DNA of 64,000 bases, from positions 62,001 through 126,000 of the forward strand of contig NZ_JAPVBJ010000007.1 of assembly GCF_026967985.1 (NCBI RefSeq). The letters are read 5' to 3'. Position 1 is the first letter of the stretch, and each line of letters opens with the position of its first letter. A program made the position numbers and the translations under genes. This DNA comes from Modestobacter sp. VKM Ac-2984. Its GTDB lineage: Bacteria > Actinomycetota > Actinomycetes > Mycobacteriales > Geodermatophilaceae. The notes under the pieces are model-generated. The model did not search any database. It worked only from the letters and a program-made list of their open reading frames with translations, and was not told the origin of the DNA. This document shows positions 8,626 through 33,238 of the stretch, piece by piece.

Positions 8626-8685
8626 GGCCTCGTCCAGAGGCTCGCCGCGAGCCTGCGAGTGGTGAGGGGGACGAGGTCCTTTGAG
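8626..8685 (-). repeat. Hairpin repeat R1, copy 1
   Basis: Read on the minus strand, this is a hairpin with outer stem CCTCGTCC/GGACGAGG (8669-8676 with 8628-8635) and the conserved interior CACCACTCGCAGGCTCG. It is related to copies at 15090 and 33180. Here it lies between yceI and dnaX, antisense to both. Confidence 0.75.
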
Positions 8686-8691
8686 TAACCT
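8686..8691 (+). promoter_or_regulatory. -10 box for leaderless dnaX message
   Basis: TAACCT followed by exactly six bases and the GTG start codon. There is no Shine-Dalgarno sequence, which fits a leaderless transcript. Confidence 0.55.
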
Positions 8692-8697
8692 CGCGGC

Positions 8698-10983
8698 GTG
8701 GCTCTGGCGCTCTACCGCAAGTACCGTCCGGCGACCTTCGCCGAGGTGGTCGGGCAGGAGCACGTCACCGCGCCCCTGATGAACGCGGTGGACGGCGGGC
8801 GGATCAACCACGCCTACCTGTTCAGCGGGCCGCGGGGCTGCGGGAAGACGTCGTCGGCGCGGATCCTGGCCCGCTCGCTGAACTGCGAGCAGGGGCCGAC
8901 CTCCACCCCCTGCGGCGTCTGCGGCTCGTGCATCGCGCTGGCCCCCGACGGCCCCGGCTCGATCGACGTCATGGAGATCGACGCGGCCAGCCACGGTGGT
9001 GTCGACGACGCCCGCGACCTGCGCGAGAAGGCGTTCTTCGCCCCGGTGCACAGCCGCTACAAGGTCTACATCGTCGACGAGGCGCACATGGTGAGCTCGC
9101 AGGGCTTCAACGCCCTGCTCAAGGTGGTCGAGGAGCCGCCGGAGTTCCTGGTCTTCGTCTTCGCCACGACCGAGCCGGAGAAGGTCCTCCCGACCATCCG
9201 CTCGCGCACCCACCACTACCCGTTCCGGCTGGTGCCGCCCAGCACGCTGCGCGGCCTGCTGGAGAGGACGTGCGCGGCCGAGGGCGTCACCGTGGAGCCG
9301 ACGGTGTTCCCGCTGGTGGTCCGGGCCGGCGGCGGCTCGGTGCGCGACTCGCTGTCGATCCTCGACCAGCTGCTGGCCGGCGCCGGCCCCGAGGGGGTCA
9401 CCTACCGGTCGGCCGTGGGCCTGCTCGGCGTCACCGACGAGGCGCTGCTCGACGAGGCGGTCGACGCGCTGGCCGCCTCCGACGCGCCGGGCGTCTTCCA
9501 GGCCGTCGACCGGGTGGTCGAGGCCGGGCACGACCCCCGCCGGTTCGCCACCGACCTGCTCGACCGGCTGCGTGACCTGATCGTGCTGGACGCCGTGCCC
9601 GAGGCCGGCGGCAACGGCCTGCTCGACAGCCCGCCCGACCGGATCGACGTGATGAGCCGGCAGGCCCAGGCGCTGGGCGCCGCCACGCTCTCCCGGCTGG
9701 CCGACACCGTGCACGAGGGCCTCACCGAGATGCGCGGGACGACGGCCCCCCGGCTGCTCCTGGAGCTCGTCTGCGCCCGGATGCTGCTGCCCGGGGTCGA
9801 CGGCTCGGCCGCAGCCACCCTGCAGCGCCTGGAGCGGCTGGAACGGCGGATGTCGATCGCCGGCGAGCACGCCGGCCGCCCGGAGGCCGCCGCCGTCCCG
9901 GCGCCGGTGCGCGAGCCCGCCCGCCCGGCCCCGGTCCAGGCACCGCCGCCCGCGGTCCACACCCCGGCGGCCCCGGCGGCTCCGGCGGCTCCGGCCCCGC
10001 AGGCTGCGGCCCCGCAGGCCCCGGCGCCGGAACCCGTGGCGCCCCCCGTCGCTGCGCCGACCAGCCGGCCGGCGTACGTCCGTCCCTCGCAGGCCCGGTC
10101 CGCGCCGGCCGCCCCCACCCCTGCCCCGGCCTCCCCGCCGGCCCCGGAGGGGGACGACGGCTGGCCGGTGACCGCCCGCCCGGGCACACCCGCCCCGGCG
10201 CCGGCGGCTGCCCAGCCGCCCGCCGCCCAGCCGCACGCCGCCGAGCCGCCACGGCCCCGGTCGGAGAGCGCGCCGCCGTCCGACGTCCCGTTGCCGCCGG
10301 AGCCCACCGACGACGAGGACTGGCCGCAGCCGGCTCGTCCGGCGGCGGAACCGCCCCGCGCCCCCGCGCCGGCCGCGGACGCCGGCGCTGCCCCGGCACC
10401 CCGGGCCGCTGCGGAGTCGGCGCCGGCGCCCCGCGGCGGCGAGCCGACGCCGCTGGTGTCGGCCACCGCTGCCGAGCCGGCCGATGACGGTGCGCTGACC
10501 ACCGCCGACGTGCGGCGGATCTGGCCGGAGCTGCTCAAGGTGGTGCGCGGGCACAAGCGCACCACCGAGGCCCTGCTCAAGAGCGCCCAGGTCCACGACC
10601 TGACCAACGGGGTGCTCACCCTGGCGGCCACCTCGCCGGCGTTGGCCAAGATGCTGGGCGACGACCTCAACAAGGACGTCATCCGGCAGTCGCTGCAGGA
10701 GCTGCTCGGCGTCCGCTGGAAGGTGCAGGCCGTCGTCGACGGGGGACCGGGGCAGCCCGGGGCTGCCGGCGGTGGCTCGGGGGGCGGGGCGCCGGTGTCA
10801 CCGGAGGCGGCGCGGGCCGCCGTGCAGGCCGCGGAGTCCGCCGAGGCCGACGAGCTGATGGCCGAGCGGGCCGCCGACGCGGCCTCCGGCGACACCGCGG
10901 ACGCCGCGCCGGCGCTGGACCCCGAGGCCGCCGCGCTCCAGCTGCTGCGCACCCAGCTCGGTGCGCGACCGATCGACAGCTGA
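8698..10983 (+). CDS. dnaX: DNA polymerase III subunit gamma/tau
   Basis: The clamp-loader ATPase of the replisome, 761 aa. Residues 1-370 form the AAA+ core: Walker A GPRGCGKT (44-51), zinc cysteines C63, C72, C75 and C78, and Walker B with DEAH (127-130). Domain III follows. Residues about 395-600 are a Pro/Ala-rich low-complexity linker, longer than in E. coli. A C-terminal domain of about 90 residues (TTADVRRIWPELLKVVRG) would contact the polymerase. I see no A-rich slippery site of the E. coli gamma-frameshift type, so only tau is expected. The GTG start is leaderless. Confidence 0.95.
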   Translation: MALALYRKYRPATFAEVVGQEHVTAPLMNAVDGGRINHAYLFSGPRGCGKTSSARILARSLNCEQGPTSTPCGVCGSCIALAPDGPGSIDVMEIDAASHGGVDDARDLREKAFFAPVHSRYKVYIVDEAHMVSSQGFNALLKVVEEPPEFLVFVFATTEPEKVLPTIRSRTHHYPFRLVPPSTLRGLLERTCAAEGVTVEPTVFPLVVRAGGGSVRDSLSILDQLLAGAGPEGVTYRSAVGLLGVTDEALLDEAVDALAASDAPGVFQAVDRVVEAGHDPRRFATDLLDRLRDLIVLDAVPEAGGNGLLDSPPDRIDVMSRQAQALGAATLSRLADTVHEGLTEMRGTTAPRLLLELVCARMLLPGVDGSAAATLQRLERLERRMSIAGEHAGRPEAAAVPAPVREPARPAPVQAPPPAVHTPAAPAAPAAPAPQAAAPQAPAPEPVAPPVAAPTSRPAYVRPSQARSAPAAPTPAPASPPAPEGDDGWPVTARPGTPAPAPAAAQPPAAQPHAAEPPRPRSESAPPSDVPLPPEPTDDEDWPQPARPAAEPPRAPAPAADAGAAPAPRAAAESAPAPRGGEPTPLVSATAAEPADDGALTTADVRRIWPELLKVVRGHKRTTEALLKSAQVHDLTNGVLTLAATSPALAKMLGDDLNKDVIRQSLQELLGVRWKVQAVVDGGPGQPGAAGGGSGGGAPVSPEAARAAVQAAESAEADELMAERAADAASGDTADAAPALDPEAAALQLLRTQLGARPIDS

Positions 10984-10998
10984 CCGGCGCGCCATTCC

Positions 10999-11038
10999 CA
11001 CGGCGAGGGCCGGGGCTTCCTACGGCGAGGACCGGGGC
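10999..11038. repeat. Tandem 18-base duplication over a stop codon
   Basis: Units 10999-11016 and 11021-11038 match at 16 of 18 positions (YACGGCGAGGRCCGGGGC) with a 22-base period. The second unit contains the TAG stop (minus strand, 11020-11022) of the antiporter gene and its last codons. Confidence 0.6.
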
Positions 11039-12204
11039 GGCGCGGAACGCTGGGCGAGCCGGCGCACCCACGGGTCGACCAGCCGCGGCATCAGCGGCCC
11101 CAGCACGGCCAGGATCAGCACGTAGGCGGCGACCGTCGAGCCGAAGGCCGCCGGCACGCTGCCCAGCACCAGGCCGGCGATGATGATCGAGAACTCCCCG
11201 CGTGCGACCAGGGCCGCCCCGGCGCGCACCCGGCCGGGCGGCCCCACGCCGGCCCGGCGGCCGGCGACCCACCCGGTGCCGAACTTGGTCACGATCCCGA
11301 CCGCGGCCAGTGCCGCTGCGGGCAGCAGCGCGGCGGGCAGCTGCGAGGGGTCGGTCGACAGCCCGAAGAAGACGAAGAAGACCGCGGCGAACAGGTCGCG
11401 CAGCGGGGCGAGCACGTCCCCGATCCGCTCGGCGACCTCACCGGAGAGGGCGATCCCGAGCAGGAACGCACCCACCGCCGCCGAGACGTGCACCGCCTCG
11501 GCGGCGCCGGCGACCAGCAGCGCCAGACCCAGCACGCGCAGCAGCAGGATCTCGTTGGACCGCGCCCCGACGAACCTGGTCACCGTGTTGCCGTGGCGCA
11601 CCGCGACGGCCAGCACGGCCGCGAGGGTGGCCAGGGCGACGCTGACCGACAGCAGGGCGTCGCCGGTGGTGGTGGCCGCGACGACGCCGGTGAGCACCGG
11701 GAGGTACGCGGCCATCGCCAGGTCCTCGATGACCAGGACGCCGAGCACCGCCGGGGTCTCCCGGTTGCCGAGCCGGCCGAGGTCGGTCAGGAGCTTGGAG
11801 ACGATCCCCGACGAGCTGATCGCGGTGACGCCGAACAGCGCCAGCGCGGCGGTGGGCCCCCAGCCCAGGAACAACGCCAGGGCGGCCCCGGGCAGGCCGT
11901 TGAGCAGCAGGTCGACGACCCCGACCGGCGCCTGGCGGCGCAGGTTCTCGACCAGGTCACCGGCGGTGTACTCCAGCCCGAGGACGAGCAGCAGGAGCAC
12001 GATGCCGACCTCGGCGCCGGTGGAGAAGAAGCCCTCGGGGGCGTCCAGCGGCAGCAGCCCGCCGGTGCCGAACGCCAGCCCGGCGAGCAGGTACAGCGGG
12101 ATGGGGGACAGGCCGATCCGGCCGGCCAGCGAGCCGAGCAGCCCCAGCCCGAAGAGGACGGCGCCCAGCTCGAGCAGCAGGACCGCGGTGTGCCCCAGGT
12201 CCAT
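11020..12204 (-). CDS. CPA2-family K+(Na+)/H+ antiporter (KhtU/KefB-like)
   Basis: A 394-aa integral membrane exchanger with about 12-13 transmembrane helices and no TrkA-N domain attached. The N-terminus (LLLELGAVLFGLGLLGSLAGRIGLSPIPLYLLAGLAFG) and the segment FGVTAISSSGIVSKLL with its acidic neighbour region VLVIEDLAMAAYLPVL are typical of CPA2 antiporters. It starts at ATG 12204, overlapping by one base the stop of the regulatory subunit gene (TGATG), so the pair is translationally coupled as in KhtTU. The exported ion is inferred to be K+ from that pairing. Confidence 0.85.
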   Translation of the reverse strand: MDLGHTAVLLLELGAVLFGLGLLGSLAGRIGLSPIPLYLLAGLAFGTGGLLPLDAPEGFFSTGAEVGIVLLLLVLGLEYTAGDLVENLRRQAPVGVVDLLLNGLPGAALALFLGWGPTAALALFGVTAISSSGIVSKLLTDLGRLGNRETPAVLGVLVIEDLAMAAYLPVLTGVVAATTTGDALLSVSVALATLAAVLAVAVRHGNTVTRFVGARSNEILLLRVLGLALLVAGAAEAVHVSAAVGAFLLGIALSGEVAERIGDVLAPLRDLFAAVFFVFFGLSTDPSQLPAALLPAAALAAVGIVTKFGTGWVAGRRAGVGPPGRVRAGAALVARGEFSIIIAGLVLGSVPAAFGSTVAAYVLILAVLGPLMPRLVDPWVRRLAQRSAPPRSSP

Positions 12205-12686
12205 CAGCGGGGGTTCAGCAGGTCACCGACCGCTGCGACGCCGTCCGACGTGCCGACCACGACCAGCCGGTCCTCGGCCTGGAACCGGAAGTCCGGGGTG
12301 GGCGAGGCGATCATCTCCTCACCCCGGACGACCGCGACGACGGAGGCGCCGGTGCGGGTCCGGATGGCCGCGTCGCCCAGGGTCGCGGCGACGTAGGGGG
12401 AGCCGGGCTCGATCGGCACGCCCTCGGTGGCCAGGCTCTCCACCTGCTCACGCAGCCGGGACAACCGCTCGGTGATCCGCGGGGCGCCCAACAGCTCGGC
12501 GACGACCTCGCTCTCCTCCGCGGTCAGCTCGATGGTGGCCGCCGTGGCGTCGGGGTCCCGCTCGTCGTAGAGGACGACGTGCCGGGCGCCGTTGCGCTGG
12601 GAGATGACGCCGACCCGCCGGCCCTGTGCGGTCACCAGGTCGTGGCGGAGCCCGATCCCGGGCAGTCGTGTCTCCTCGACGTCCAT
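12204..12686 (-). CDS. Antiporter regulatory subunit with TrkA-C (RCK C) domain, KhtT-like
   Basis: A 160-aa cytoplasmic protein. The N-terminal ~80 residues (MDVEETRLPGIGLRHDLVT...) match the KhtT-type N-domain. The C-terminal half (about 85-160) is a TrkA-C domain ending FQAEDRLVVVGTSDGVAAV, the fold that binds nucleotides such as c-di-AMP in related regulators. An AAGGA motif lies seven bases before ATG 12686. Together with the following gene it probably forms a gated K+/H+ antiporter responding to pH or turgor. The ligand is not evident from sequence. Confidence 0.8.
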   Translation of the reverse strand: MDVEETRLPGIGLRHDLVTAQGRRVGVISQRNGARHVVLYDERDPDATAATIELTAEESEVVAELLGAPRITERLSRLREQVESLATEGVPIEPGSPYVAATLGDAAIRTRTGASVVAVVRGEEMIASPTPDFRFQAEDRLVVVGTSDGVAAVGDLLNPR

Positions 12687-12763
12687 CGGTGTCCTTGCTC
12701 CTGTCTCGTCGCGGGCGCAGGTGAGGTCCCCGCCGTCGGCGCTCATCGTGCCCCGCCGGGTGG

Positions 12764-14014
12764 TCAGCCGGCAGCGGTCCTTGGTCCCCGGTCCAGTGCC
12801 CGGAAGCGGGCCAGCGCGGCGACCGAGACCACCGGGCCGGCGGCGAGCAGCACCAGCGTCCACCGCCAGGTGACCAGGTCGGCCAGGTAGGGCAGCGCGC
12901 TGATGGTCACCGTGGTGAGCAGGAACCCGGTCGCGGTCTGCACGGTGAGGGCGGTGCCGACCCAGCGCCGGTCGGAGACCTCGCTGAGCAGGGTGGAGAA
13001 CATCGCCGAGTCGGCGATGACGCTGGCCCCCCAGACGCAGACGAAGACGGCGAGGGCCGTGGTCGGCCAGGACCAGGCCCACGGGGAGAGCAGGCAGCAC
13101 ACGCCGCTGGTGGTCACCGCGACGGTGGCGACCGGCGCCCGCCCCCACCGGCCGGCGAGCCAGCCGGCCAGCACGCAGCCGGCCGCGCCGCAGATCCCGA
13201 ACGCGACCAGGGCCAGCAGGGCGATCCGGGCGGTCGGCAGGGCGGGGTCGACCACGTCCCGGGAGGCGGTGATCCACACCGCGGCCCAGGTCCAGAGCGC
13301 GTAGAGCTCCCACATGTGCCCGAGGTAGGCGAGGTTCACCAGCCGCGGCCGGGCCGACCGGAAGCCGTCGAAGGCCTGGGCGGCCCGCGGGCGGCTGCCC
13401 ACCGACAGGTGCGGCCCGGCGCGCAGCAGGACCACCGCCAGCAGGGCCGCGACCGCGCCGCTGGCCGCGGCGGCGACCAGCACGGTCCGCCACGAGTCGC
13501 CGAGCACGCCGACCAGCAGCTGGGGCAGCAGCGAACCGAGGGTGAGCGCGCCGACCAGCACGCCGAGCGCCAGCCCGCGCCCGCGGGCGCCGAACCACGA
13601 GGCCATCAGCTTCATGCCGATCGGGTAGACCAGCGCGAGGCCCATCCCGGTCAGGAAGCGCAGCGCGACGCCGAGCAGCGGCCCGTCGGCCAGGACGGCG
13701 ACGCCGAGGGTGCACGCGGCGGCGGCCCCGGCCCCGGTGGCGAGCAGCCGCTCGGGGCGGACCCGGTCGGCCAGCCCGGTCGTCGCCGAGGCGAGCGCGC
13801 CCACGACGAAGCCCAGCTGCACGGCGACGGTGAGGCCGACCCCACCGGCGGTGCCGAGCTCCCAGTCGCGGCGCAGCACGGGCAGCACGGCGGAGGCGGA
13901 GAACCACACGGCCAGGGCCAGCACCTGGGTCAGCGCGATGAGCGCCAGCTGCGACCACGGCCCGGTGCGTGCCCCGCCCACGGTGCCGCGGACCTGCACG
14001 CCGTCACCCGTCAC
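12764..14014 (-). CDS. Major facilitator superfamily transporter
   Basis: A 416-aa membrane protein with 12 predicted helices and the MFS loop 2-3 pattern [12 protein letters not shown]. The substrate is not predictable, though the fold resembles the NarK/CynX-like group of anion or small-molecule carriers. The likely start is GTG 14014 (VTGDGVQ), after a weak CAGGG, or the GTG 15 bases later. It faces the ybaB promoter with about 85 bases between. It is on the same strand as the KhtT-like gene but 77 bases separate them, so a shared transcript is possible. Confidence 0.75.
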
Positions 14015-14098
14015 GGGGCGACCCTGCCACCGAGCCCGGGCACGCCCCAAGTCGGCTCGCGGGCGCGGTGCGTGCGGCGGACTGTCGGTGCCAGCACC

Positions 14099-14104
14099 TA
14101 CGCT
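14099..14104 (+). promoter_or_regulatory. -10 box for leaderless ybaB-recR message
   Basis: TACGCT, six bases, then ATG of ybaB at 14111. No Shine-Dalgarno sequence is present. Confidence 0.55.
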
Positions 14105-14110
14105 CGGACC

Positions 14111-14446
14111 ATGCGACCCGGTGGCCAGCCCGACATGCAGCAGATCATGAAGCAGGCTCAGCAGATGCAGCAGCAGCTCGCTGCTGCGCAGGAGGAGCTG
14201 GCCCGCGCCGAGGTGACCGGTTCGGCCGGTGGCGAGCTGGTCACCGTGACCATGACCGGCAGCGGCGACGTCACCGCCGTCACGATCGCCCCGGCCGCCG
14301 TCGATCCCGACGACGTCGAGACCCTGCAGGACCTGGTGGTCGCGGCCGTCCGTGACGCCCAGCGCGCCGTCGGCGAGCTCACCGCCTCCACGATGGGCCC
14401 GCTGACCGGCGGTCTCGGTGGCGGGCTGGGTCTCCCCGGCCTCTGA
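14111..14446 (+). CDS. ybaB: YbaB/EbfC-family nucleoid-associated protein
   Basis: A 111-aa dimeric DNA-binding protein encoded just before recR, as in most bacteria. It has a long N-terminal helix ([22 protein letters not shown]), a central sheet ([20 protein letters not shown]) and a second helix with [19 protein letters not shown], followed by a Gly-rich tail. Length and layout match the family. The start is leaderless with a TACGCT box six bases upstream. recR follows after 43 bases. Confidence 0.92.
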
Positions 14447-14489
14447 TCCACCCGGGTGCGCACACCGCCACCCGCAGCGAAGGAGAACC

Positions 14490-15089
14490 GTGTACGAGGG
14501 CGCTGTCCAGGACCTCATCGACGAGCTCGGGCGGCTGCCCGGCGTCGGTCCCAAGAGCGCGCAGCGCATCGCCTTCCACCTGCTGGCCGCCGAGTCGACC
14601 GACGTCGGCCGGCTCGTCGCCGCCCTGCAGCGGGTGCAGGCCGAGGTCCGGTTCTGCGTGACCTGCCACAACGTCGCCGAGGCCGAGCAGTGCCGGATCT
14701 GCCGTGACCCGCGGCGCACGCTCGACGTCATCTGCGTCGTCGAGGAGCCCAAGGACGTCGTGGCGATCGAGCGGACCCGGGAGTTCAAGGGCCGCTACCA
14801 CGTGCTCGGCGGGGCGATCAGCCCGATCGAGGGGATCGGCCCCGACGACCTGAAGGTCAAGGAGCTGATGACCCGGCTGATGGACGGCCAGGTCACCGAG
14901 CTGATCATCGCCACCGACCCGAACCTGGAGGGCGAGGCGACCGCCGCGTACCTGGCCCGGCTGGTCGGCCCGCTGGGGCTGGCGGTGTCCCGGCTGGCCA
15001 GCGGGCTGCCGGTGGGCGGTGACCTGGAGTACGCCGACGAGGTCACCCTGGGCCGGGCGTTCGAGGGCCGCCGCCGCATCGACGCCTGA
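14490..15089 (+). CDS. recR: Recombination mediator RecR
   Basis: A 199-aa protein of the RecFOR gap-repair pathway. It has an N-terminal helix-hairpin-helix ([21 protein letters not shown]), a C4 zinc finger (C56, C59, C68, C71) and a Toprim domain with [12 protein letters not shown] and [18 protein letters not shown] Walker B-like C-terminal segment completes the usual 200-residue length. GTG 14490 was chosen because AGGAGAA lies directly upstream and the product then begins [10 protein letters not shown], as in homologues. Hairpin repeat R1 starts right after the stop. Confidence 0.95.
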
Positions 15090-15150
15090 GGAAGGACCCC
15101 GCTGCCCCCCCACCACTCGCAGGCTCGTGGTGGGCCCCTGCAGCGGGGCC
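15090..15150 (+). repeat. Hairpin repeat R1, copy 2 (also likely recR terminator)
   Basis: This copy begins directly after the recR stop. The outer stem CCCCGCTGC/GCAGCGGGG (15097-15105 with 15140-15148) and inner stem CCCACCAC/GTGGTGGG (15109-15116 with 15127-15134) are both perfect. The loop is TCGCAGGCTC. It resembles the copies at 8626 and 33180. Confidence 0.8.
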
Positions 15151-15273
15151 GTGCCAGCACGTCAGCGGGGGAGGCCGTCGGCCGACGGATCTCAGGGCGG
15201 GGCGGTGGTTGAGCGATCCATCACAACCCTGGGGTCGTGGTTGGCATCCGGAGCGGAGGCAGGCCATCCTCGG

Positions 15274-15351
15274 GTGGTGGTCGGGCCAGGTTCGTTGACG
15301 CGTCGTCGCGCCATCGACCTCATGCGCCTGGCCGGCACGCTCTGTCGGTGA
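15274..15351 (+). CDS. Putative sulfur-responsive leader peptide upstream of metNIQ
   Basis: A short frame of 25 codons (GTG 15274; alternatives are GTG 15277 and TTG 15295) ending SLTRRRAIDLMRLAGTLCR-stop. The ending closely resembles the actinobacterial 'putative leader peptide' group with RRH(I/V)DL-R(V/L)---LCR, found upstream of sulfate, cysteine and methionine genes, with a Cys codon (TGT) two codons before the stop. It lies 109 bases upstream of metN. Ribosome pausing at the Cys/Arg codons would couple charged-tRNA supply to expression of the importer. The family resemblance is from memory, and the start codon is uncertain. Confidence 0.6.
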   Translation: MVVGPGSLTRRRAIDLMRLAGTLCR

Positions 15352-15459
15352 GCCGACACCCCTGACCGGAGGTCCGCGCCGCGCCGTTCGGCGCCGAGCC
15401 AGCTGGACCCCGGCAGTGGAGAGCTGTGCCCGCCGTCCGCTCCACCTGCGAGGACCCCC
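15352..15459 (+). promoter_or_regulatory. metN 5' leader downstream of the leader peptide
   Basis: It contains GC-rich inverted repeats (GCGCCG/CGGCGC near 15382-15395, and GTGGAG at about 15416 with CTCCAC near 15439) that could form alternative hairpins close to the metN ribosome binding site (GAGGA at 15450). No SAM-I riboswitch core is recognisable. The upstream part of the gap, 15151-15273, holds nothing else I can support. Confidence 0.35.
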
Positions 15460-17204: not shown

Positions 17205-17241
17205 CCGTCCGTCCCCGTACCACGAGGAGAGAGAACTGATC

Positions 17242-18063: not shown

Positions 18064-18078
18064 GCCGTGCCGGTGGGG

Positions 18079-19334: not shown

Positions 19335-19441
19335 GACGTCGGGTCGGCGTGGCCACCGTCGCGGGGGCCGACCGGGGGTCGGCCGGCGGTGCCGTAGCCC
19401 TCGGCCACCCCCAGCACAGCGTGATCGGCGACGATGGACCC

Positions 19442-23377: not shown

Positions 23378-23466
23378 TCGAGCCGGATCAGAACGCCCCG
23401 GGTGACCCGCCGTCCGCGAGTTACCCGGGGCACCGGCATGTCCGCCGCCACCTCAGGCTGGGAGAG

Positions 23467-24576: not shown

Positions 24577-24577
24577 C

Positions 24578-25774: not shown

Positions 25775-27456
25775 GCGTCGTCGACATCAAGGACCTGCAG
25801 ATCTCCTTCGCCACCGATGCCGGCACCGTCACCGCGGTGCAGGACGTCACCCTCGCCGTCCAGGCCGGTGAGGTGCTGGCCATCGTGGGGGAGAGCGGCA
25901 GCGGCAAGACCGTCACCGCGCGCAGCATCCTGGGGCTGCTGCCGGAGACCGCGCGGGTGCGCGGTGCGGTGGTGCTGAGCAGCAAGGACGGCACCGACGA
26001 GCACGACGTCGTCCCGCTGTCCGGTGCGAAGCTGCGCGAGGTCCGCGGGCAGGACGCCGCGATGGTGTTCCAGGAGCCCTCGACCTCCCTGAACCCGGTC
26101 TACCCGATCGGCTGGCAGATCGCCGAGGGGCTGCGGGCGCACGGGGAGTACAGCAAGAAGGAGGCCCGGGCCAAGGCGATCGACGTGCTGCGCCGGGTCG
26201 GCATCCCCGACCCCGAGGACCGCGTCGACCACTACCCGCACCAGTTCTCCGGCGGGCAGAAGCAGCGCATCGTCATCGCCCAGGCGCTGGTGCTCGACCC
26301 CGGCGTGATCATCGCCGACGAGCCGACGACGGCGCTGGACGTGACGGTGCAGGCCGAGATCCTGGAGCTGCTGCGCCGCTGCCGGGACGACTTCGGTGCC
26401 GCCATCGTGCTGATCACTCACAACATGGGCGTGGTCGCCGACCTGGCCGACCGGGTCGCCGTCATGTACCAGGGCCGGATCGTCGAGCAGGCCGACGTGC
26501 GCACGCTGTTCAGCGCACCGAAGGACCCCTACACCCGGCAGCTGTTGGCCGCCGTCCCGCGGCTCGGGCAGGGCGTCGAGCGGACCCGGGAGCGGGCCGC
26601 CGGGCGCGCGGCCGGCTGGGAGCGCGCCGCCCCCGTCGTCGAGGCGAGGGACCTGCGGATCGTCTACCCCGGCCGGATGCGCCGCCCGGACTTCGTCGCC
26701 GTGGACGGCGTCAGCTTCAGCATCCGGCCGGGTGAGGTGCTCGGTCTGGTCGGGGAGTCCGGCAGCGGGAAGACCACCATCGGGCGGGCGATCGCCGGGC
26801 TGACCAAGGTCAGCGACGGCTCGCTGGCGGTGCTGGGCACCGAGATGAACGGGATGAAGGAGCGCCCGTTCCGGCCGGTGCGCGAGCGGATCGGGTTCGT
26901 CTTCCAGGACCCGGCGTCCAGCTTCAACCCGCTGCTCACCATCGCCGACGCCGTGGCCGAGCCGCTCGTGGTGCACAAGCGGGCCAAGGACCCCCGCGCG
27001 GCCCGGCCGCGGGTCGACGAGCTGCTGGAGGCGGTGCAGCTGCCGAAGGCGTTCGGCGACCGGTACCCGCACGAGCTCTCCGGCGGGCAGCGGCAGCGGG
27101 CCAGCCTGGCCCGGGCGCTGGCCCTGCAGCCCGAGCTGCTCATCGCCGACGAGCCGACCTCGGCGCTGGACGTGTCGGTGCAGGCCCGGGTGCTGGAGCT
27201 CTTCGCCGAGCTGCAGCGGGAGCTGGGGTTCGCCGCGCTGTTCATCAGCCACGACCTGGCCGTCGTCGACCTGCTCGCCGACCGGATCGCGGTGCTCTAC
27301 CGCGGCCGGCTGGTGGAGGAGGGTACGGGGGCCGAGGTGCTGGGTGCGCCGAAGCACCCGTACACCCAGCGGCTCATCGCCTCCCTGCCGGTGCCCGACC
27401 CAGACGAGCAGGCCCGCCGCCGCACCCACTGGAACACCCTCCGCGCCGCCGAGTGA
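25771..27456 (+). CDS. Peptide ABC transporter, fused DppD-DppF ATPase
   Basis: A 561-aa protein with two complete ATPase domains, replacing separate DppD and DppF. Domain 1 (about 1-270) has Walker A GESGSGKT at 40-47, signature FSGGQKQR, Walker B IIADEPTTALD and HNMG at the switch. Domain 2 (about 290-555) has Walker A near 327-334, signature LSGGQRQR, LLIADEPTSALD and SHDL. Each ends with the oligopeptide-type C-terminal extension (PYTRQLL, PYTQRLI). All catalytic motifs are intact in both halves. The start overlaps dppC, and a perfect hairpin follows the stop. Confidence 0.93.
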   Translation: MSVVDIKDLQISFATDAGTVTAVQDVTLAVQAGEVLAIVGESGSGKTVTARSILGLLPETARVRGAVVLSSKDGTDEHDVVPLSGAKLREVRGQDAAMVFQEPSTSLNPVYPIGWQIAEGLRAHGEYSKKEARAKAIDVLRRVGIPDPEDRVDHYPHQFSGGQKQRIVIAQALVLDPGVIIADEPTTALDVTVQAEILELLRRCRDDFGAAIVLITHNMGVVADLADRVAVMYQGRIVEQADVRTLFSAPKDPYTRQLLAAVPRLGQGVERTRERAAGRAAGWERAAPVVEARDLRIVYPGRMRRPDFVAVDGVSFSIRPGEVLGLVGESGSGKTTIGRAIAGLTKVSDGSLAVLGTEMNGMKERPFRPVRERIGFVFQDPASSFNPLLTIADAVAEPLVVHKRAKDPRAARPRVDELLEAVQLPKAFGDRYPHELSGGQRQRASLARALALQPELLIADEPTSALDVSVQARVLELFAELQRELGFAALFISHDLAVVDLLADRIAVLYRGRLVEEGTGAEVLGAPKHPYTQRLIASLPVPDPDEQARRRTHWNTLRAAE

Positions 27457-27457
27457 G

Positions 27458-27493
27458 CTGGAGGGGCCGAAGTCGCGACTTCGGCCCCTCCAG
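27458..27493. terminator. Terminator of peptide ABC operon
   Basis: A perfect 36-bp palindrome whose half is CTGGAGGGGCCGAAGTCG, beginning one base after the stop codon. It has no unpaired loop sequence of its own and no T-run. Confidence 0.75.
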
Positions 27494-27607
27494 GGCTCGG
27501 GCCCCTGTCCGGCACGGAGCTCGCGCCGAGGCGACGGGTAGGTGACCACCGGGGGAACGGTCCCCTGTCGATGGCTGATCCCGGGGCCGGCTGGGCACAG
27601 GCCGGGT

Positions 27608-28684
27608 GTGACCCTGCTCGAGCTGCTGGCTGGACTCGTCCTGCTCACCGCCGGCGGGGAGCTGCTGGTGCGCGGGGGCTCGGCCCTGGGCCGCGCGGTC
27701 GGCATCTCACCTCTGGTCATCGGGCTCACCGTCGTCGCCTTCGCCACCGCAGCACCCGAGCTGGCTGTCTCGCTGGGTGCCGCGCTGACCGGTGCCGCAG
27801 GGATCGCGGTCGGCAACGTGGTCGGCAGCAACATCGCCAACGTGCTGCTGGTCGGCGGGCTCACCGCGGTCGCCGCGCCGCTGGCCGTCGACCGGAAGCT
27901 GCTGCGTGGAGACCTGCCGGCGCTCCTGGGCCTGTCCGTCCTGCTGTTCCTGCTCGCCATCGACGGCACCGTCGCCCTGTGGGAGGGGCTCCTGCTGGTG
28001 GTCCTGGCTGTCGCCTACCTCAGCTGGAAGGTGCTGGCCGGTCGGCGCGAGGAGGCCCCGGACGCGACCGAGGACGAACGGCCGCCGCTGCGGCCTCGCA
28101 CGGTGCTCGTGCCCCTCGGGATGCTGCTGGTCGGCATCGCCCTCCTGGTGGTCGGCGCGCGGATGCTGGTCTCCGCCGCGACCACGATCGCCGCCGCGTT
28201 GGGGCTCTCCGACCTGGTCATCGGACTGACCGTGGTCGCTGTCGGCACCTCGTTGCCCGAGTTGGCCACGACGGTGGTGGCTGCGCTGCGCGGTCAGCGG
28301 GAGATGGCGCTGGGCAACATCGTGGGCAGCAACGTGCTGAACATCGGGGTGGTGCTCGGGCTCACCGCGGTCGTCGCCCCGGGTGGCCTCCCGGTCGATG
28401 CCTCCGCACTGCGTCTGGACCTGCCGGTCATGATCGCCGTCACGCTCGCGTTCGTGCCGCTGCTGCTCACCGGTGCCAGGCTGGTCCGCTGGGAGGGCGG
28501 GTTGCTGCTCGCCTGGTACGCGATCTACCTCGCCGTCCTCGTGCTCCCGGCCATGGGATCGGCGGCCGCCCCGGCGTTCACCGCGGTGGCGCAGTGGGGG
28601 CTGCTGCCGCTCACCGCCATCGGGCTGGCGGTGCTCACCGTCCGGGAGGTCCGGACACGGCGACGGGCCGCCACCACCGGCTGA
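27608..28684 (+). CDS. Calcium/sodium:cation antiporter (CaCA family, YrbG-like)
   Basis: A 358-aa membrane exchanger of two inverted repeats of five helices. Each repeat carries its alpha motif: ITVVAFATAAPELAVSLGAAL-type sequence with GNVVGSNIANVL in the first half, and VVAVGTSLPELATTVVAAL with GNIVGSNVLNIG in the second. The central cytoplasmic loop (EEAPDATEDERPPLRPR) separates the halves. It probably exports Ca2+ in exchange for Na+ or H+. GTG 27608 was chosen because the longer frame adds a non-family, Trp/Pro-rich leader. It converges with the pirin genes 13 bases downstream. Confidence 0.85.
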   Translation: MTLLELLAGLVLLTAGGELLVRGGSALGRAVGISPLVIGLTVVAFATAAPELAVSLGAALTGAAGIAVGNVVGSNIANVLLVGGLTAVAAPLAVDRKLLRGDLPALLGLSVLLFLLAIDGTVALWEGLLLVVLAVAYLSWKVLAGRREEAPDATEDERPPLRPRTVLVPLGMLLVGIALLVVGARMLVSAATTIAAALGLSDLVIGLTVVAVGTSLPELATTVVAALRGQREMALGNIVGSNVLNIGVVLGLTAVVAPGGLPVDASALRLDLPVMIAVTLAFVPLLLTGARLVRWEGGLLLAWYAIYLAVLVLPAMGSAAAPAFTAVAQWGLLPLTAIGLAVLTVREVRTRRRAATTG

Positions 28685-28697
28685 CCCGCGGGGTCGG

Positions 28698-29663
28698 TCA
28701 GCGGGTGCGGCCGCGGGGCTTGAGGGGGAGCGGGGGCAGGGCGGGGGCGCCGAGCCGCTGGCCGTCGAAGCCGGGGACGTCGGCGAACCGGTCGCCCTCG
28801 GCCCACTGCTCGGCGTACTCGGCGATCTCCTCACCCGAGCGGCCGACGAAGTTCCACCACATGACGATCCGCTCCTCGAACGGCTCGCCGCCCAGCAGCA
28901 GCAGCTGGGCGGCGTCGTCCGTGCGCAGCCGCACGGTGCGCCGGCCCGAGCCCAGGTAGAGCATCGCGCCGGGGGTGAGCGGCACGCCCTCCACGTCGGC
29001 GGTGCCCGACGCGGTGAGCAGCGCGTACTCGAAGTCCGGCTCCAGCGGCAGTTCGACGTCGGCGCCGGCGGAGAGCGCCAGGTCCACCCCGACCAGCGGG
29101 GTGTGCGCCGTCCCCGGTGAGGTGGCGCCGGCCATCGCGCCCATCAGCACGGTTGCCTGCACCCCGTCGGAGTCGAAGCCGGGCAGTGCCGTGTGGTGCT
29201 CGAACGCCGGGGCGACGTCCCGGACGCCGTCGGGCAGCGCCACCCACAGCTGCGCGCCGTGCAGGTACCGCGGGTGTACCGCCGGCGACTGCTCGGCGTG
29301 CGCGATCGCGTGTCCGGCGGTCATCAGCGCCAGCTCCCGCGGCCGGATCAGCACGTCGCTGCCGAGCGAGTCGCGGTGGTGCACCTCGCCGTCCAGCAGC
29401 CAGGAGACCGTCTGCAGCCCGGTGTGCGGGTGCGGCAGCACCTGCATCCCCGCGGAGCCGAACACGTCGTCGGGGCCGTAGTGGTCGACGAAGGCCCAGG
29501 CGCCGACCAGCCGCCGGCCGAGCGTGGGCAGCAGCCGGCGGACGTGGGTGGCCTCGCCGAGCAGGACCTCCTTGCCCGGCAGCAGGTCCAGCGCCGGCCC
29601 GGCCGACGCCTGGGCGCGCCCGCCCAGCTCGTGCGGCGCGGGCCGCGGCTCGAGGTTGCTCAT
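28698..29663 (-). CDS. Pirin family protein (second of a tandem pair)
   Basis: A 321-aa bicupin. The metal-binding N-terminal cupin has HPHTGLQTVSWLLDGEVHHRDSLG and ISAVHPRYLHGAQLWV-like features (AEQSP...LHGAQLWVALP), as in pirins with quercetin 2,3-dioxygenase activity. The C-terminal cupin ends with GEPFEERIVMWWNFVGRSGEEI, a pirin hallmark. Function in bacteria is uncertain: a redox regulator or quercetinase. It follows its paralogue by 10 bases, so both come from the promoter at 30711. Confidence 0.85.
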   Translation of the reverse strand: MSNLEPRPAPHELGGRAQASAGPALDLLPGKEVLLGEATHVRRLLPTLGRRLVGAWAFVDHYGPDDVFGSAGMQVLPHPHTGLQTVSWLLDGEVHHRDSLGSDVLIRPRELALMTAGHAIAHAEQSPAVHPRYLHGAQLWVALPDGVRDVAPAFEHHTALPGFDSDGVQATVLMGAMAGATSPGTAHTPLVGVDLALSAGADVELPLEPDFEYALLTASGTADVEGVPLTPGAMLYLGSGRRTVRLRTDDAAQLLLLGGEPFEERIVMWWNFVGRSGEEIAEYAEQWAEGDRFADVPGFDGQRLGAPALPPLPLKPRGRTR

Positions 29664-29673
29664 GGCCGCCTTC

Positions 29674-30672
29674 CTACTCGCTCAGACCGTGCACGTCACC
29701 GTGCGCGACCCGGGCGGCCGGGATGGTGCCGAGCCGGCCGGCGGAGGCGTCGGTCATCGCGTCCAGCACCTCCTGCCGGGTGTTCATCACGAACGGCCCG
29801 TACATCGCGATCGGCTCCCGGATCGGCAGCCCGCCGAGGACGACGACGTCGAGGTCCGGCGTGCGGGCCTCGGCGTGCCGGTCGCCGGGCCGGGTGCCGT
29901 GCACGGTCACCGTGTCGCCGGGGCCGAGGACAGCGAGCTGCCCGGTGTGCACCGGGGCGCCGTCGACGCCCACCGAGCCGGAGCCGGAGAGCACGTAGAC
30001 GAGCGCGTTGAAGTCCGGCCGCCAGGGCAGGTCCAGCGAGGCACCGGGGGAGACGGTCGCGTGCACCATCGCCATCGGCGTGTAGGTGCTGCCCGGGCCG
30101 CGGTGCCCGCCGACGTCGCCGGCGATCACCCGCAGCAGCGCGCCGCCGTCCGGGCTGGTCAGCAGCACCGACTGGCGGGCCCGCAGGTCCTGGTAGCGCG
30201 GCTCCACCCACTTCTGCGCCGCGGGCAGGTTCACCCACAGCTGCAGGCCGTGGAACAGCCCGCCGCTGAGCACCAGCGCCTCCGGTGGCCGCTCGATGTG
30301 CAGGACGCCGCCGCCGGCGGTCATCCACTGGGTGTCGCCGTCGCTGATCGTGCCGCCGCCACCGTGGCTGTCGGCGTGCTCGAAGGTGCCGTCGAGGAGG
30401 TAGGTGACGGTCTCGAAGCCGCGGTGCGGGTGCCACGAGGTGCCCTTGGGCTCCCCGGGCGCGTACTCGACCTCGCCCATCTGGTCCATGTGCAGGAACG
30501 GGTCCAGGGCGCGCAGGTCGACCCCGGCGAACGCGCGCCGGACCGGGAAGCCCTCGCCCTCGAAGCCGGACGGCGCAGTGGTCACCGAGCGCACCCGGCG
30601 GCGCACCGTGCGGGGTGCGGGCAGGGGGACCCGGGCGAGGGTGGTGGTGTCCTCGACGGTCACGGCGGGCAT
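29674..30672 (-). CDS. Pirin family protein (first of a tandem pair)
   Basis: A 332-aa bicupin homologous to its downstream neighbour but clearly divergent. Metal ligands are recognisable in HPHRGFETVTYLLDGTFEHADS and the later HIERPPEALVLSGGLFHGLQLWVNLP. The C-terminal domain ends GGLPIREPIAMYGPFVMNTRQEVLDAM. GAGG lies five bases before ATG 30672. A near-consensus promoter and a symmetric operator precede the gene, so the pair is probably inducible. Confidence 0.85.
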   Translation of the reverse strand: MPAVTVEDTTTLARVPLPAPRTVRRRVRSVTTAPSGFEGEGFPVRRAFAGVDLRALDPFLHMDQMGEVEYAPGEPKGTSWHPHRGFETVTYLLDGTFEHADSHGGGGTISDGDTQWMTAGGGVLHIERPPEALVLSGGLFHGLQLWVNLPAAQKWVEPRYQDLRARQSVLLTSPDGGALLRVIAGDVGGHRGPGSTYTPMAMVHATVSPGASLDLPWRPDFNALVYVLSGSGSVGVDGAPVHTGQLAVLGPGDTVTVHGTRPGDRHAEARTPDLDVVVLGGLPIREPIAMYGPFVMNTRQEVLDAMTDASAGRLGTIPAARVAHGDVHGLSE

Positions 30673-30687
30673 GGCGGCCTCACTTCT

Positions 30688-30701
30688 GTTGAGGGCTCAA
30701 C
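30688..30701. promoter_or_regulatory. Operator-like inverted repeat at pirin promoter
   Basis: GTTGAG-GG-CTCAAC, perfect 6+2+6, sits about 10 bases downstream of the -10 box and spans the expected transcription start and early leader. The TTGA...TCAA symmetry suits a MarR- or PadR-type repressor. Confidence 0.5.
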
Positions 30702-30710
30702 TACGTGGCC

Positions 30711-30739
30711 ACTGTAAGCCGCCGCGACCGGCCTGTCTT
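30711..30739 (-). promoter_or_regulatory. Promoter of the pirin pair
   Basis: Reading the minus strand: -35 AAGACA (30739-30734), a 17-bp spacer, -10 TACAGT (30716-30711). This is the best-matching sigma-A-type promoter in the window. Confidence 0.6.
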
Positions 30740-30744
30740 CCCCG

Positions 30745-31701
30745 TCAGGGTGACCGGCCGGTGCGCCGGCGCCGGTCGGCCGCGTCGGCCAGCAGCAGGA
30801 AGGCCTGCGCCTCGGGGGAGTGGCCGGGCCGGTCGAAGTGCGGGGCAGCGCTCGCGCCGGTGACCCGGCCGAGCTCGTCGACCCGGTCGCAGACGGCGGC
30901 GAGCAGCGACTCCCCGAGGTCCCCGTACCGGGCGGGCAGCCAGCCCTCGGCCGCGCCGGTCAGCGCCGCGAACGCGAACATCGACGCGACGTTGGTGTCC
31001 GCCGGGGTGGCCGGGTCGTCGAGCACGTCGCCGAACAGGCCGTCCGGACGGCGCAGCGGCAGGACGGCGTCCAGCAGCGCGCGCACCTCACCGGCGACCG
31101 TGGTGCCGGCGGCCCCCGGCAGCCAGCGCACCGCCCGGGCTGCGCCGGCGGCGACCCAGCCGTTCCCGGTGCCCCAGGCGCGCGGGTCGGCGAACGCCCC
31201 GGCGTCCTCGTCCCAGCGGGCCGCCCACAGACCGGAGACCGGATCGCGCAGCCGGGCGCGGTGGCCGGCCAGTTGGGCGACCGCGGCCGCGCCGTCGCCG
31301 CGGCAGGCGAGGAACGGCACCACCATGTGGACGGTGTCGGCCCACACCTGGCGGCTGCCGACCAGGTGGAACAGCGTCCCGTCTGCCGCCCGCGGTGCAC
31401 CGGCACGCAGCCAGCCGTGCTGGCGGGCGGCGGCCGCGGCCAGCGCCGGGTCGCCGAGCCGGTGGGCCAGGGAGTCCACGAACTCACCGAGCGCCGCGCC
31501 GTTCACCGCGCAGGCCGGGTCCAGCTCGGCCAGCCGGCCGTCGGGCAGCTGGCGGGCCACCGCGTCGTCGACCAGCGCACGCAGCGCGACCGCCGCGCCC
31601 GAGTCGTCGAGCACGGCGGCCGTCAGCCCCTGGTCCCAGGAGTGCCGCTGGACCACGAGCAGGCAGCACAGCACCCGCTCGCGGACCTCGTCGGTCAGCA
31701 C
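30745..31701 (-). CDS. GH105/GH88-like unsaturated uronyl hydrolase
   Basis: A 318-aa alpha/alpha-toroid protein. Segments typical of the YteR/YesR group are SWDQGLTAAVL at the N-terminus, VWADTVHMVVPFLA in the middle (DT-M-VPFL, carrying a catalytic Asp) and AWGTGNGWVAAGAARAV. GH105 and GH88 enzymes hydrate the double bond of unsaturated glucuronyl or galacturonyl residues, releasing them from oligosaccharides. It lies 13 bases after the beta-glucosidase gene and belongs to the sugar operon, so it may process an acidic glycan fragment or another glycoside. It is shorter than typical members (about 350-380), so the assignment is moderate. Confidence 0.6.
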   Translation of the reverse strand: MLTDEVRERVLCCLLVVQRHSWDQGLTAAVLDDSGAAVALRALVDDAVARQLPDGRLAELDPACAVNGAALGEFVDSLAHRLGDPALAAAAARQHGWLRAGAPRAADGTLFHLVGSRQVWADTVHMVVPFLACRGDGAAAVAQLAGHRARLRDPVSGLWAARWDEDAGAFADPRAWGTGNGWVAAGAARAVRWLPGAAGTTVAGEVRALLDAVLPLRRPDGLFGDVLDDPATPADTNVASMFAFAALTGAAEGWLPARYGDLGESLLAAVCDRVDELGRVTGASAAPHFDRPGHSPEAQAFLLLADAADRRRRTGRSP

Positions 31702-31714
31702 CGTCAGGTGCCGG

Positions 31715-33112
31715 TCACACGCCGTCCTTGGCGCTGCGGATGACGTCGGCGTAGGTGAGGGCGCTGTCCTTCGGCGTCCGCACCTGGGTGTCGTAGTCGA
31801 CGTGCACCAGCCCGAAGCGCTGCGCGTACCCGCGGGCCCACTCGTAGTTGTCCAGCAGCGACCAGGCGAAGTAGCCGCGGACGTCGGCGCCGGCGTCGAT
31901 CGCCTCGGTCATCGCCGCCAGGTGCCGCAGCAGGTAGTCCACCCGCTCGGGGTCGTGCACCTGACCGTCCGCGGAGACCTCGTCCGGCCAGGCCGAGCCG
32001 TTCTCGGTGATGAACATCGGCGTGCCCGGCGCGATCCCGGAGATCCGGGTGAGCAGCGCGGTGAACGCGTCCGGGGAGATGCCCCAGCCCATCGTGGTGG
32101 TCGGGCCCTCGGGCGCGAGGTCCTCGACCCGCTCGGCGCCGATGAAGGTCGGGTGCTTGCCGCTGGGCTCGCTGAGCCCGCGGACCGTGGACTCGAAGTA
32201 GTAGTTCACGCCCAGCCAGTCCACCGGCGTGGAGATGACCTCCAGGTCGCCGTCCTCGATCGGCAGCGGGGCGCCGGCGGCCGCCAGGTCGGCGACGACG
32301 TCGGCCGGGTACTCGCCGGTGGCGATGGGCACCAGGAACATCCGGTTCTGCTGCCCGTCGAGCCGGCGGGCAGCGTCGACGTCGGCGGGGGAGTCGGTCG
32401 CCGGCGACATCGGCGTGAAGTTCAGCGTGATGCCCAGGTGGTCGGCGCCCTTGTCGCGCATCACCTGGGTGGCCAGGCCGTGCCCGAGCAGCAGGTGGTG
32501 CACCGCGCGGGAGGCCTCGACCGGGTCCTGGTGGCCAGGGGCGTGCTGGCCGGCCATGTGGCCCAGCAGCGAGCTGCACATCGGCTCGTTCAGCGTCGAC
32601 CAGTGCGGCACCCGGTCGCCCAGGGCGTCGTACACGATGCCGGCGTAGTCGGCGAAGCGCAGGGCGGTGTCCCGGTTCGTCCAGCCGCCCCGGTCCTGCA
32701 GCCCCTGCGGCAGGTCCCAGTGGTACAGCGTGAGCCACGGGGCGATGCCGGCCCCGAGCAACTCGTCGACCAGCCGGCGGTAGAAGTCCAGGCCGCGCTG
32801 CTCGATCGCACCGGCCCCGGTGGGGAGCACCCGGGACCAGGAGACGGAGAACCGGTAGGCGTCCAGGCCCAGGTCCTTCATCAGCGCGACGTCGGCCGGG
32901 TAGCGGACGTAGTGCTCGACGGCGACGTCGCCGGTGTCGCCCTGGAACGTCTTGCCGGGGGTGTGGCTGAAGGTGTCCCAGATCGACGGCCCGCGGCCGT
33001 CGACGTCCACCGCACCCTCGATCTGGTAGGCGGCGGTGGCGGCGCCGAAGACGAAGCCGGGCGGGAAGGTCAGCCCGGCAGCGGTCTGCGGGCGCACGTC
33101 GGTGGAGGTCAT
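31715..33112 (-). CDS. Beta-glucosidase, glycoside hydrolase family 1
   Basis: A 465-aa intracellular TIM-barrel hydrolase that removes terminal beta-linked glucose or a related sugar. The acid/base is E176 in TLNEPM and the nucleophile is E370 in ITENG. The N-terminal FPPGFVFGAATAAYQIEGA signature is present, and the length is typical for GH1. There is no signal peptide, so it acts on sugars already imported, presumably by the ABC transporter encoded upstream. A hairpin repeat (R1 copy 3) lies between it and the ATPase gene and may set the level of expression. Confidence 0.92.
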   Translation of the reverse strand: MTSTDVRPQTAAGLTFPPGFVFGAATAAYQIEGAVDVDGRGPSIWDTFSHTPGKTFQGDTGDVAVEHYVRYPADVALMKDLGLDAYRFSVSWSRVLPTGAGAIEQRGLDFYRRLVDELLGAGIAPWLTLYHWDLPQGLQDRGGWTNRDTALRFADYAGIVYDALGDRVPHWSTLNEPMCSSLLGHMAGQHAPGHQDPVEASRAVHHLLLGHGLATQVMRDKGADHLGITLNFTPMSPATDSPADVDAARRLDGQQNRMFLVPIATGEYPADVVADLAAAGAPLPIEDGDLEVISTPVDWLGVNYYFESTVRGLSEPSGKHPTFIGAERVEDLAPEGPTTTMGWGISPDAFTALLTRISGIAPGTPMFITENGSAWPDEVSADGQVHDPERVDYLLRHLAAMTEAIDAGADVRGYFAWSLLDNYEWARGYAQRFGLVHVDYDTQVRTPKDSALTYADVIRSAKDGV

Positions 33113-33179
33113 GACAGGTGTGCTCCTTGCGAGGACGTGGGGGACCGCACGGCGAGGTCAGGCCGTGCGGGAGACGTCG

Positions 33180-33238
33180 TGGTGGCCCCCTGCAGGGGCC
33201 CGCCGCGAGCGTGCGAAGGGTGGGGGCAGGGGGCTTCT
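33180..33238 (-). repeat. Hairpin repeat R1, copy 3
   Basis: On the minus strand it begins right after the stop of the ABC ATPase. The outer stem GCCCCCTGC/GCAGGGGGC (33226-33234 with 33185-33193) is perfect and covaries with the other two copies. The interior CTTCGCACGCTCGCGG is less conserved. Confidence 0.75.

What the first reader, a model, noticed from the sequence alone, without database searches (positions are those of the whole stretch)
8626..33238. Three-copy interspersed hairpin repeat (R1) with a covarying outer stem
Copies at 8626-8685 (minus), 15090-15150 (plus) and 33180-33238 (minus) share the interior CACCACTCGCAGGCTCG or a near form and close with CCTCGTCC/GGACGAGG, CCCCGCTGC/GCAGCGGGG and GCCCCCTGC/GCAGGGGGC. 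The outer arms differ between copies but each pairs perfectly, so selection or the copying mechanism keeps the fold rather than the sequence. Two copies begin directly at a stop codon (TGA-rrAAGsMCCC), and one lies upstream of dnaX in antisense. This looks like a family-specific small mobile or RNA element (REP/MITE-like, or a structured terminator), and no feature class explains it fully.
Basis: partly seen in the sequence, partly recalled or inferred. Interest (0 to 1): 0.75.

Follow-up and report, generated by a model that had tools for sequence, protein, structure and literature searches.

The report
Hairpin repeat parked at stop codons
A short DNA hairpin, scattered in dozens to well over a hundred copies through genomes of one family of soil and rock bacteria, usually sits right behind the stop codons of genes and keeps being gained, lost and swapped, although these genomes lack the enzyme known to move similar hairpins in other bacteria.

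Summary
It occurs in 101 of 112 genomes of its bacterial family (named hits are nearly all Geodermatophilaceae) and in 3 genomes from other families among 200 of the order. Covariation of both stems is strong.

Three things were not in the finding. (1) 73 of 100 intergenic copies start within 3 nt of a co-directional stop codon, 50 of them as TGA-N-element. (3) Copies turn over: at 20 sites compared with a relative of 93.5% identity, 6 keep the same copy; the rest are absent, swapped or remnants. One clean gain shows no target duplication.

No genome of 112 matches the Y1 transposase of REP/RAYT systems. Best reading: a non-autonomous, REP-like mobile hairpin that lands behind stop codons, mover unknown. 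Effects on termination or ribosomes are plausible but unproven.

The parts
8626..8682 (-). Copy 1 (short-arm form B): outer arms CCTCGTCC (8676-8669) and GGACGAGG (8635-8628); antisense upstream of dnaX, far end 9 nt past the YceI-like gene's stop
15091..15150 (+). Copy 2 (long-arm form A): outer arms CCCCGCTGC (15097-15105) and GCAGCGGGG (15140-15148); one base behind the recR stop codon (15087-15089)
33184..33240 (-). Copy 3, diverged: arms GCCCCCTGC / GCAGGGGGC; overlaps the stop codon (33241-33239) of an ABC transporter ATPase gene; an ancestral site, since the orthologous site of G014 (85% identity) holds an intact copy
7987..8616 (+). YceI-like gene upstream of copy 1 (start codon uncertain)
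8698..10983 (+). dnaX (DNA polymerase III gamma/tau) downstream of copy 1
14490..15089 (+). recR, whose stop codon anchors copy 2; the same position holds a copy in 15 of 30 family recR loci read
33239..34336 (-). sugar-type ABC transporter ATPase whose stop codon anchors copy 3
31715..33112 (-). glycosyl hydrolase family 1 gene downstream of copy 3

Best explanation
This is a non-autonomous, REP-like mobile hairpin of about 59 bp, nearly confined to Geodermatophilaceae. The unit is a double-stem hairpin: a GG/CC step with one bulged base, an outer stem of 8-9 bp of free sequence, a conserved asymmetric internal loop, an inner stem and a conserved apex. New copies land with an exact 5' junction behind a stop codon, mostly C-TGA-N, in the direction of that gene; the 3' junction is variable, sequence behind it can be lost, and no target duplication was seen (site comparison, few cases). 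The strand that folds best is opposite to the anchoring gene's mRNA: there the inner mismatches become G.U or G.T wobbles and the apex reads C-GA-G-CNYG-C-GA-G, tandem G.A mismatches under a CUUG-type loop (motif names recalled). I infer that a moving enzyme recognises this folded single strand, so that selection keeps the fold and the unpaired bases and not the stem letters. The enzyme is unknown and is not a Y1 transposase. Landing behind a stop codon makes an insertion nearly harmless; effects on termination, mRNA ends or terminating ribosomes are possible by-products. Shown: the family, the fold, the strand asymmetry, the anchoring, the turnover. Inferred: single-strand recognition, the mover, any host effect.
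For: 106 copies at E<=1e-3 in the genome; 101 of 112 family genomes. Covariation: 292 cells changed on both sides against 92 shuffled, 0 of 500 shuffles as high; without alignment, variable outer pairs 92% Watson-Crick against 55% shuffled (37 copies of 59 nt) and 79% (29 copies of 57 nt). Anchoring: 73 of 100 intergenic copies within 3 nt of a co-directional stop; 22.5 expected, maximum 33 in 20,000 simulations; C precedes TGA in 49 of 50 copies at distance 1 against 149 of 236 other TGA stops; 69 of 91 in other, mostly named, species. Strand: 105 of 107, with similar A.C share where no flanking gene transcribes the folding strand (27 of 38) and in convergent gaps (28 of 34). Turnover: of 20 sites, 6 same copy, 5 absent, 5 another copy, 4 remnants; a gain in G013 with five relatives empty and no target duplication. 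Zero copies in two complete genomes, G039 and G067, within positive genera, so it is dispensable.
Against: No mover was found: Y1_Tnp 0 of 112, and no transposase by Pfam among nine proteins beside copies. Polarity is clear at only one site; at the other differing sites loss or recombination is possible. 27 of 100 own intergenic copies and 22 of 91 elsewhere are not anchored; some of these are second copies in tandem or probable gene-calling misses, but not all. Some positions are old: copies follow recR in five genera, which fits host use too. Reporting against me: single copies fold only moderately better than shuffles.
Confidence: 0.72

Rival explanations
1. Host-serving 3'-end element: a portable terminator or mRNA-end hairpin, kept where it is because it ends transcription or protects the mRNA, and spread by recombination.
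For: Position behind stop codons, only 6 of 107 copies between divergent genes, a copy behind recR in 15 of 30 loci of five genera, and an unrelated hairpin there in some loci without it (G020, G096, G066). In tight convergent gaps (22 of 35 anchored convergent copies have under 45 nt behind them) it is probably the only hairpin. Two remnants keep the outer stem paired.
Against: In convergent gaps with room the native hairpin persists behind the element (n=13, mean z -4.5; native n=21, -4.2; p 0.89). No U-run follows on either strand. The strand in the anchoring gene's mRNA is the weaker fold in 105 of 107, whatever the context. Two complete genomes have none. Several copies lie 10-40 nt before the next start codon of a co-directional gene, where a strong terminator would be costly.
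Confidence: 0.15
2. RNA-templated spread: an RNA of the complement strand is copied into DNA at a nick behind the stop codon, like a miniature SINE.
For: Exact junction at one end, variable junction with deletions at the other; a fold with G.U wobbles and a CUUG-type loop on the complement; an extra tail at the variable end in a minority of copies (16 of 119).
Against: Reverse transcriptase genes occur in 49 of 112 genomes and do not follow copy number: element-rich G004, G014 and G044 have none, low-copy G045 has one. Most copies end sharply at GGCC(G).
Confidence: 0.08
3. Classical REP elements moved by a RAYT (Y1) transposase.
For: Interspersed hairpins near gene 3' ends with a loop like that of several REPs (table; PMC3733652 passages).
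Against: Y1_Tnp (PF01797): 0 of 112 family genomes, while 5 of 14 control genomes ring. GTAG within the 12 nt before the element in 10 of 107 by my reading.
Confidence: 0.02
4. The covariation comes from quasi-palindrome correction by template switching, not from selection.
For: The outer arms vary freely yet pair.
Against: Correction should also mend the two inner mismatches; they stay, and on one strand only (A.C in 77 of 105 and 30 of 106 cells, G.T in 1 and 0). Unpaired loop bases are strongly conserved.
Confidence: 0.02

Closest known systems
REP sequences, GTAG and CGTC superfamilies (PMC3733652: passages and section 6; PMC2817692: passages)
   Same: High-copy interspersed hairpins, mostly between unidirectional and convergent genes and near 3' ends; GTAG REPs often provide a TAG stop; CGTC REPs have no dedicated transposase.
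   Different: About 59 nt with two stems instead of 20-40 bp; no constant GTAG or CGTC tag; outer stem of free sequence; fixed place one base behind the stop; no Y1 transposase in 112 genomes.
E. coli REPs within 15 nt of a stop codon (PMC12306157: passages)
   Same: A hairpin close enough to the stop to meet the terminating ribosome; such REPs are reported to lower translation.
   Different: There 446 of 4,072 REPs lie so close; here anchoring is the rule and the distance nearly fixed. A translation effect was not tested here.
MIRU of mycobacteria (recalled; not found in the searches)
   Same: Actinobacterial intergenic repeat proposed to insert at TGA sites (recalled).
   Different: Recalled as longer, with a reading frame and in translationally coupled operons; no MIRU sequence was compared.
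IS1272, stem-loop-replacing transposition (PMC5678879: passages)
   Same: A new hairpin replaces an old one at the same foot without target duplication, as at some sites here.
   Different: IS1272 is a full insertion sequence with its transposase; here the unit is 59 bp, and a native hairpin can remain behind it. This transposase type was not searched for.

Membership tests
REP (GTAG/CGTC) | interspersed, high-copy, mostly intergenic palindrome | tested here: met
   106 copies at E<=1e-3; 100 of the 107 best are intergenic
REP (GTAG/CGTC) | size 20-40 bp with a constant unpaired GTAG or CGTC tag at one end | tested here: not met
   59-nt consensus beginning GAAGGACC; GTAG upstream in 10 of 107 by my reading
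REP/RAYT system | Y1 (HUH) transposase in the genome | tested here: not met
   PF01797 in 0 of 112 family genomes; control rings in 5 of 14
MITE | constant terminal inverted repeats | tested here: not met
   outer arms differ freely between copies
MITE | target-site duplication | tested here: inconclusive
   none seen at the one clean gain and none noticed at 20 compared sites
intrinsic terminator | stable hairpin behind the stop followed by a U-run | tested here: not met
   hairpin present, no U-run on either strand; terminators without U-runs are not excluded
intrinsic terminator | RNA 3' ends at the site | not testable with these tools
   no RNA data at hand
known Rfam family | match to a covariance model | tested here: not met
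   no overlapping match at gathering in the window or at E<=5 in six loci with copies
MIRU | sequence relation and internal reading frame (recalled) | not tested
   no MIRU sequence compared

The most novel reading that the evidence does not exclude
A new kind of mobile hairpin whose unknown, non-HUH mover recognises a folded single strand by structure (bulge, internal loop, tandem G.A and CUUG-type apex) and inserts it just behind stop codons, sensing gene ends and not only the letters CTGA. It can replace whatever hairpin stands there, so that gene ends across a whole bacterial family are continually rewritten.
Probability: 0.3. Interest if true: 0.8.

Novelty: new variant of a known kind. 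Interest (0 to 1): 0.62.

Why it matters
The repeat is in 101 of 112 genomes tested of this bacterial family, yet I found no description of it in searches of an open-access library or in Rfam. It offers a structure-selected repeat with a precisely defined landing place and no known mover, which makes the open question of how transposase-less REPs spread directly testable. It also puts a stable hairpin about 4 nt behind many stop codons, a place where E. coli REPs are reported to stall ribosomes (PMC12306157, passages).

Tried and rejected
Chance palindromes: rejected by the genome-wide family, the controls and the covariation. A three-copy repeat: rejected. REP/RAYT: no Y1_Tnp. Reverse transcriptase as mover: no correlation. 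Mover gene beside copies: nine proteins scanned, seven near own copies and two flanking copy 3; two had no Pfam family and none is a transposase. Element as replacement of native terminators: not supported where room remains. Plasmid or phage carriage: no blastn match for one 60-nt copy; the low-complexity filter could hide matches. CTGA preference alone as cause of the anchoring: CTGA-type copies 49 at stops against 3 elsewhere in gaps (my reading), with 24 against 35 such sites in the window (p 1e-9); selection against insertions elsewhere in gaps may contribute.

Limits. Gene calls are from my own codon-usage caller, so start codons are uncertain. The working set of 107 own copies includes one at E 0.0016. 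Copy counts per genome are capped by the number of candidates scored (150, 141, 49 or 27). The sorting of the 20 sites is by eye, and they are those of 107 copies that could be placed in about 860 kb of G013. Of 52 recR matches only the 30 fetched loci were read, and two of the 15 recR copies are weak (E 0.003 and 0.005). E-values of the model are rough. The three genomes of other families with copies were not checked for contamination. Nine literature searches were made; four papers were seen as passages, one of them also as a section.
Full report
WHAT IS THERE. The three hairpins are present as described. A covariance model made from 12 other copies of the same genome recovers exactly these three in the window at E 1.1e-15, 8.2e-13 and 7.4e-10; the next hit is at 0.017. 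The core pattern has 87 matches in the 4.56-Mb genome against 16 for the reversed control. The model finds 116 places at E<=1 and 106 at E<=1e-3. The consensus reads GAAGGACC, a variable arm, CCCCCACC-N-CTCGCRNGCTCG-N-GGCGGG-CCCCTG, the complementary arm, and GGCC. It comes in a long-arm form (9 bp, copy 2) and a short-arm form (8 bp, copy 1).

STRUCTURE AND STRAND. On 107 distinct rows 91.2% of cells pair against 75.9% shuffled, 292 cells are changed on both sides against 92, and the covariation score is 0.36 against 0.12; sliding the partner by 1-3 columns gives 0.04-0.09. That alignment was fitted to the structure, so I repeated the count without alignment on copies of equal length: the variable outer pairs are 92% Watson-Crick against 55% shuffled (37 copies of 59 nt) and 92% against 79% (29 copies of 57 nt). 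Many unpaired bases (5' GAAGGA, parts of the CCCCT internal loop, the apex) are invariant or nearly so. On the complement the apex reads CGAG-CNYG-CGAG: tandem G.A mismatches and a CUUG-type loop (motif names recalled); the matching TCGC-N2..4-GCTC is in 94 of 107 copies. The share of A.C at the main inner pair is similar between two co-directional genes, where no flanking gene transcribes the folding strand (27 of 38), and in convergent gaps (28 of 34). The fold is therefore a property of the unit and not tuned to local transcription.

WHERE IT SITS. Genes were called with a codon-usage caller trained on the window and a relative. Of the 107 best own copies, 45 lie between co-directional genes and 38 in convergent gaps with a gene of their own direction in front; 11 are in the other co-directional orientation, 6 between divergent genes, and 7 overlap called genes. 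Of the 100 intergenic copies 73 begin within 3 nt of a co-directional stop, 50 of them exactly one base behind it; 22.5 were expected for random place and orientation in the same gaps, and the maximum of 20,000 simulations was 33. C precedes the TGA in 49 of these 50 against 149 of 236 other TGA stops (p 5e-8). CTGA elsewhere in gaps is as common as at stops with room (35 against 24 in the window) but holds about 3 copies (reading), so real stops are favoured beyond the letters. In loci of Geodermatophilus, Modestobacter, Blastococcus, Trujillonella and a few other records, 69 of 91 copies behind a co-directional gene are anchored.

HOW IT IS DISTRIBUTED. 22 of 22 other genomes of the genus are positive, with 14 to 145 hits each (16 of 22 have 100 or more; the scored candidates were capped at 141), and 0 of 16 genomes of other families of the order are. 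In the family 101 of 112 genomes and 9 of 12 genera are positive. The eleven negatives are nine genomes of three genera with smaller genomes, some of them incomplete, and the complete G039 and G067; G045, G055, G114 and G059 have 4, 2, 5 and 12 hits. Among 200 genomes of the order, three from other families have 1-2 copies each, and 4 of these 5 copies also stand at a stop codon. One 60-nt copy has no blastn match in the plasmid and phage collections.

HOW IT CHANGES. Behind recR a copy follows the stop codon in 15 of 30 fetched loci from five genera, often with different but paired arms, two of them weak; one relative (G021) has a remnant, and three without it (G020, G096, G066) show an unrelated hairpin there. 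Against G013 (93.5% identity over the window region) 20 sites could be compared: 6 the same copy (at recR with an added array of half-units in G013, at C1:152550 with a second copy inserted beside it in the own genome), 5 absent in G013, 5 with another copy at the same stop, at the opposite convergent stop or in a compound, and 4 remnants. At one site a copy in G013 stands one base behind CTGA and in front of a native hairpin, while G000, G018, G021, G020 and G014 are empty there; no target duplication is seen. Copy 1 is shared with G018 but not with G013, G020, G009 or G014; copy 3 is older, intact in G014 and eroded in G018 and G013. Truncated older copies lie just behind a newer one at several places. 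Junctions are thus exact on the stop side and variable, with deletions, on the other.

HOW IT LIKELY WORKS. Shown: a hairpin family under selection for its fold, strand asymmetry, anchoring at stops, turnover. Inferred: an enzyme acting in trans copies or moves the folded complement strand to a site behind a stop. The Y1 transposase that moves GTAG REPs is found in none of 112 genomes, while 5 of 14 control genomes ring. Reverse transcriptases occur in 49 of 112 and do not follow copy number. As to host effects: gene ends without the element carry strong hairpins (84 ends, mean z -2.4; convergent 18, -4.8; divergent 5' ends 26, -0.03; ends with the element gave -0.9 there, but with 45-nt windows too short for it). 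With wider windows the element itself has mean z -2.5 (38 co-directional) and -2.0 (35 convergent). When a convergent gap has room, the native hairpin stands behind the element as strongly as elsewhere (n=13, -4.5, against n=21, -4.2; p 0.89); between co-directional genes the difference is not significant either (p 0.18). So the element is often an addition; in tight gaps (22 of 35 anchored convergent copies) it is probably the only hairpin and may serve as one.

WHAT IS KNOWN. REP superfamilies share the copy number and the 3'-end placement, and CGTC REPs share the lack of a dedicated transposase (PMC3733652, passages and section 6; PMC2817692, passages). This family fails their size and tag criteria and, for GTAG REPs, the transposase criterion. 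E. coli REPs within 15 nt of a stop codon are reported to stall ribosomes (PMC12306157, passages), so the fixed place here predicts an effect on translation, untested. IS1272 replaces stem-loops without duplication (PMC5678879, passages). MIRU insertion at TGA is recalled only. I found no report on repeats of Geodermatophilaceae in searches of an open-access library, and no Rfam match.

Noticed in passing
window 7777-7872 (+): Bacterial small signal recognition particle RNA, above Rfam's gathering score, just upstream of the YceI-like gene.
   Followed up: no
window 45205-45267: A near-palindrome that scores weakly on both strands with the model (E 0.017 and 0.027); it looks like a native terminator-type hairpin and not a family member.
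   Followed up: no
gene 3' ends of the own genome without the element: Very long, nearly perfect GC-rich hairpins without a U-run stand close behind many stop codons, most strongly in convergent gaps.
   Followed up: partly
L125, about 15154-15300 (recR 3' end of G013): A tandem array: one full copy followed by repeated 3' half-copies joined by a TTCCAGCACGTCACC-like spacer. Similar full-plus-half arrangements stand behind recR in G103 and G088.
   Followed up: partly
3' side of copies, own genome and other species: A minority of copies (16 of 119 in other species by a loose pattern; about 8 of 107 own by eye) carry an extra tail resembling GTTCCAGCACGTCACC, also seen in the out-of-family copy in G164; it may be a lost part of a longer unit.
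   Followed up: partly
own genome copies between divergent genes or on the promoter side, such as C1:356245, C20:115231, C16:141719: Several copies not at a stop codon are preceded by GTAG or TAG a few bases upstream, which could be a second target class, a promoter -10 box or chance.
   Followed up: no
G018 copy-3 site; G013 site of own C12:69208: Two remnants lost the inner hairpin but keep the outer stem paired.
   Followed up: no
L226 (SPQJ01000033.1): A record titled 'UNVERIFIED_ORG: Bacillus sp. AZ43' carries the repeat, so it is probably a mislabelled member of this bacterial family.
   Followed up: no
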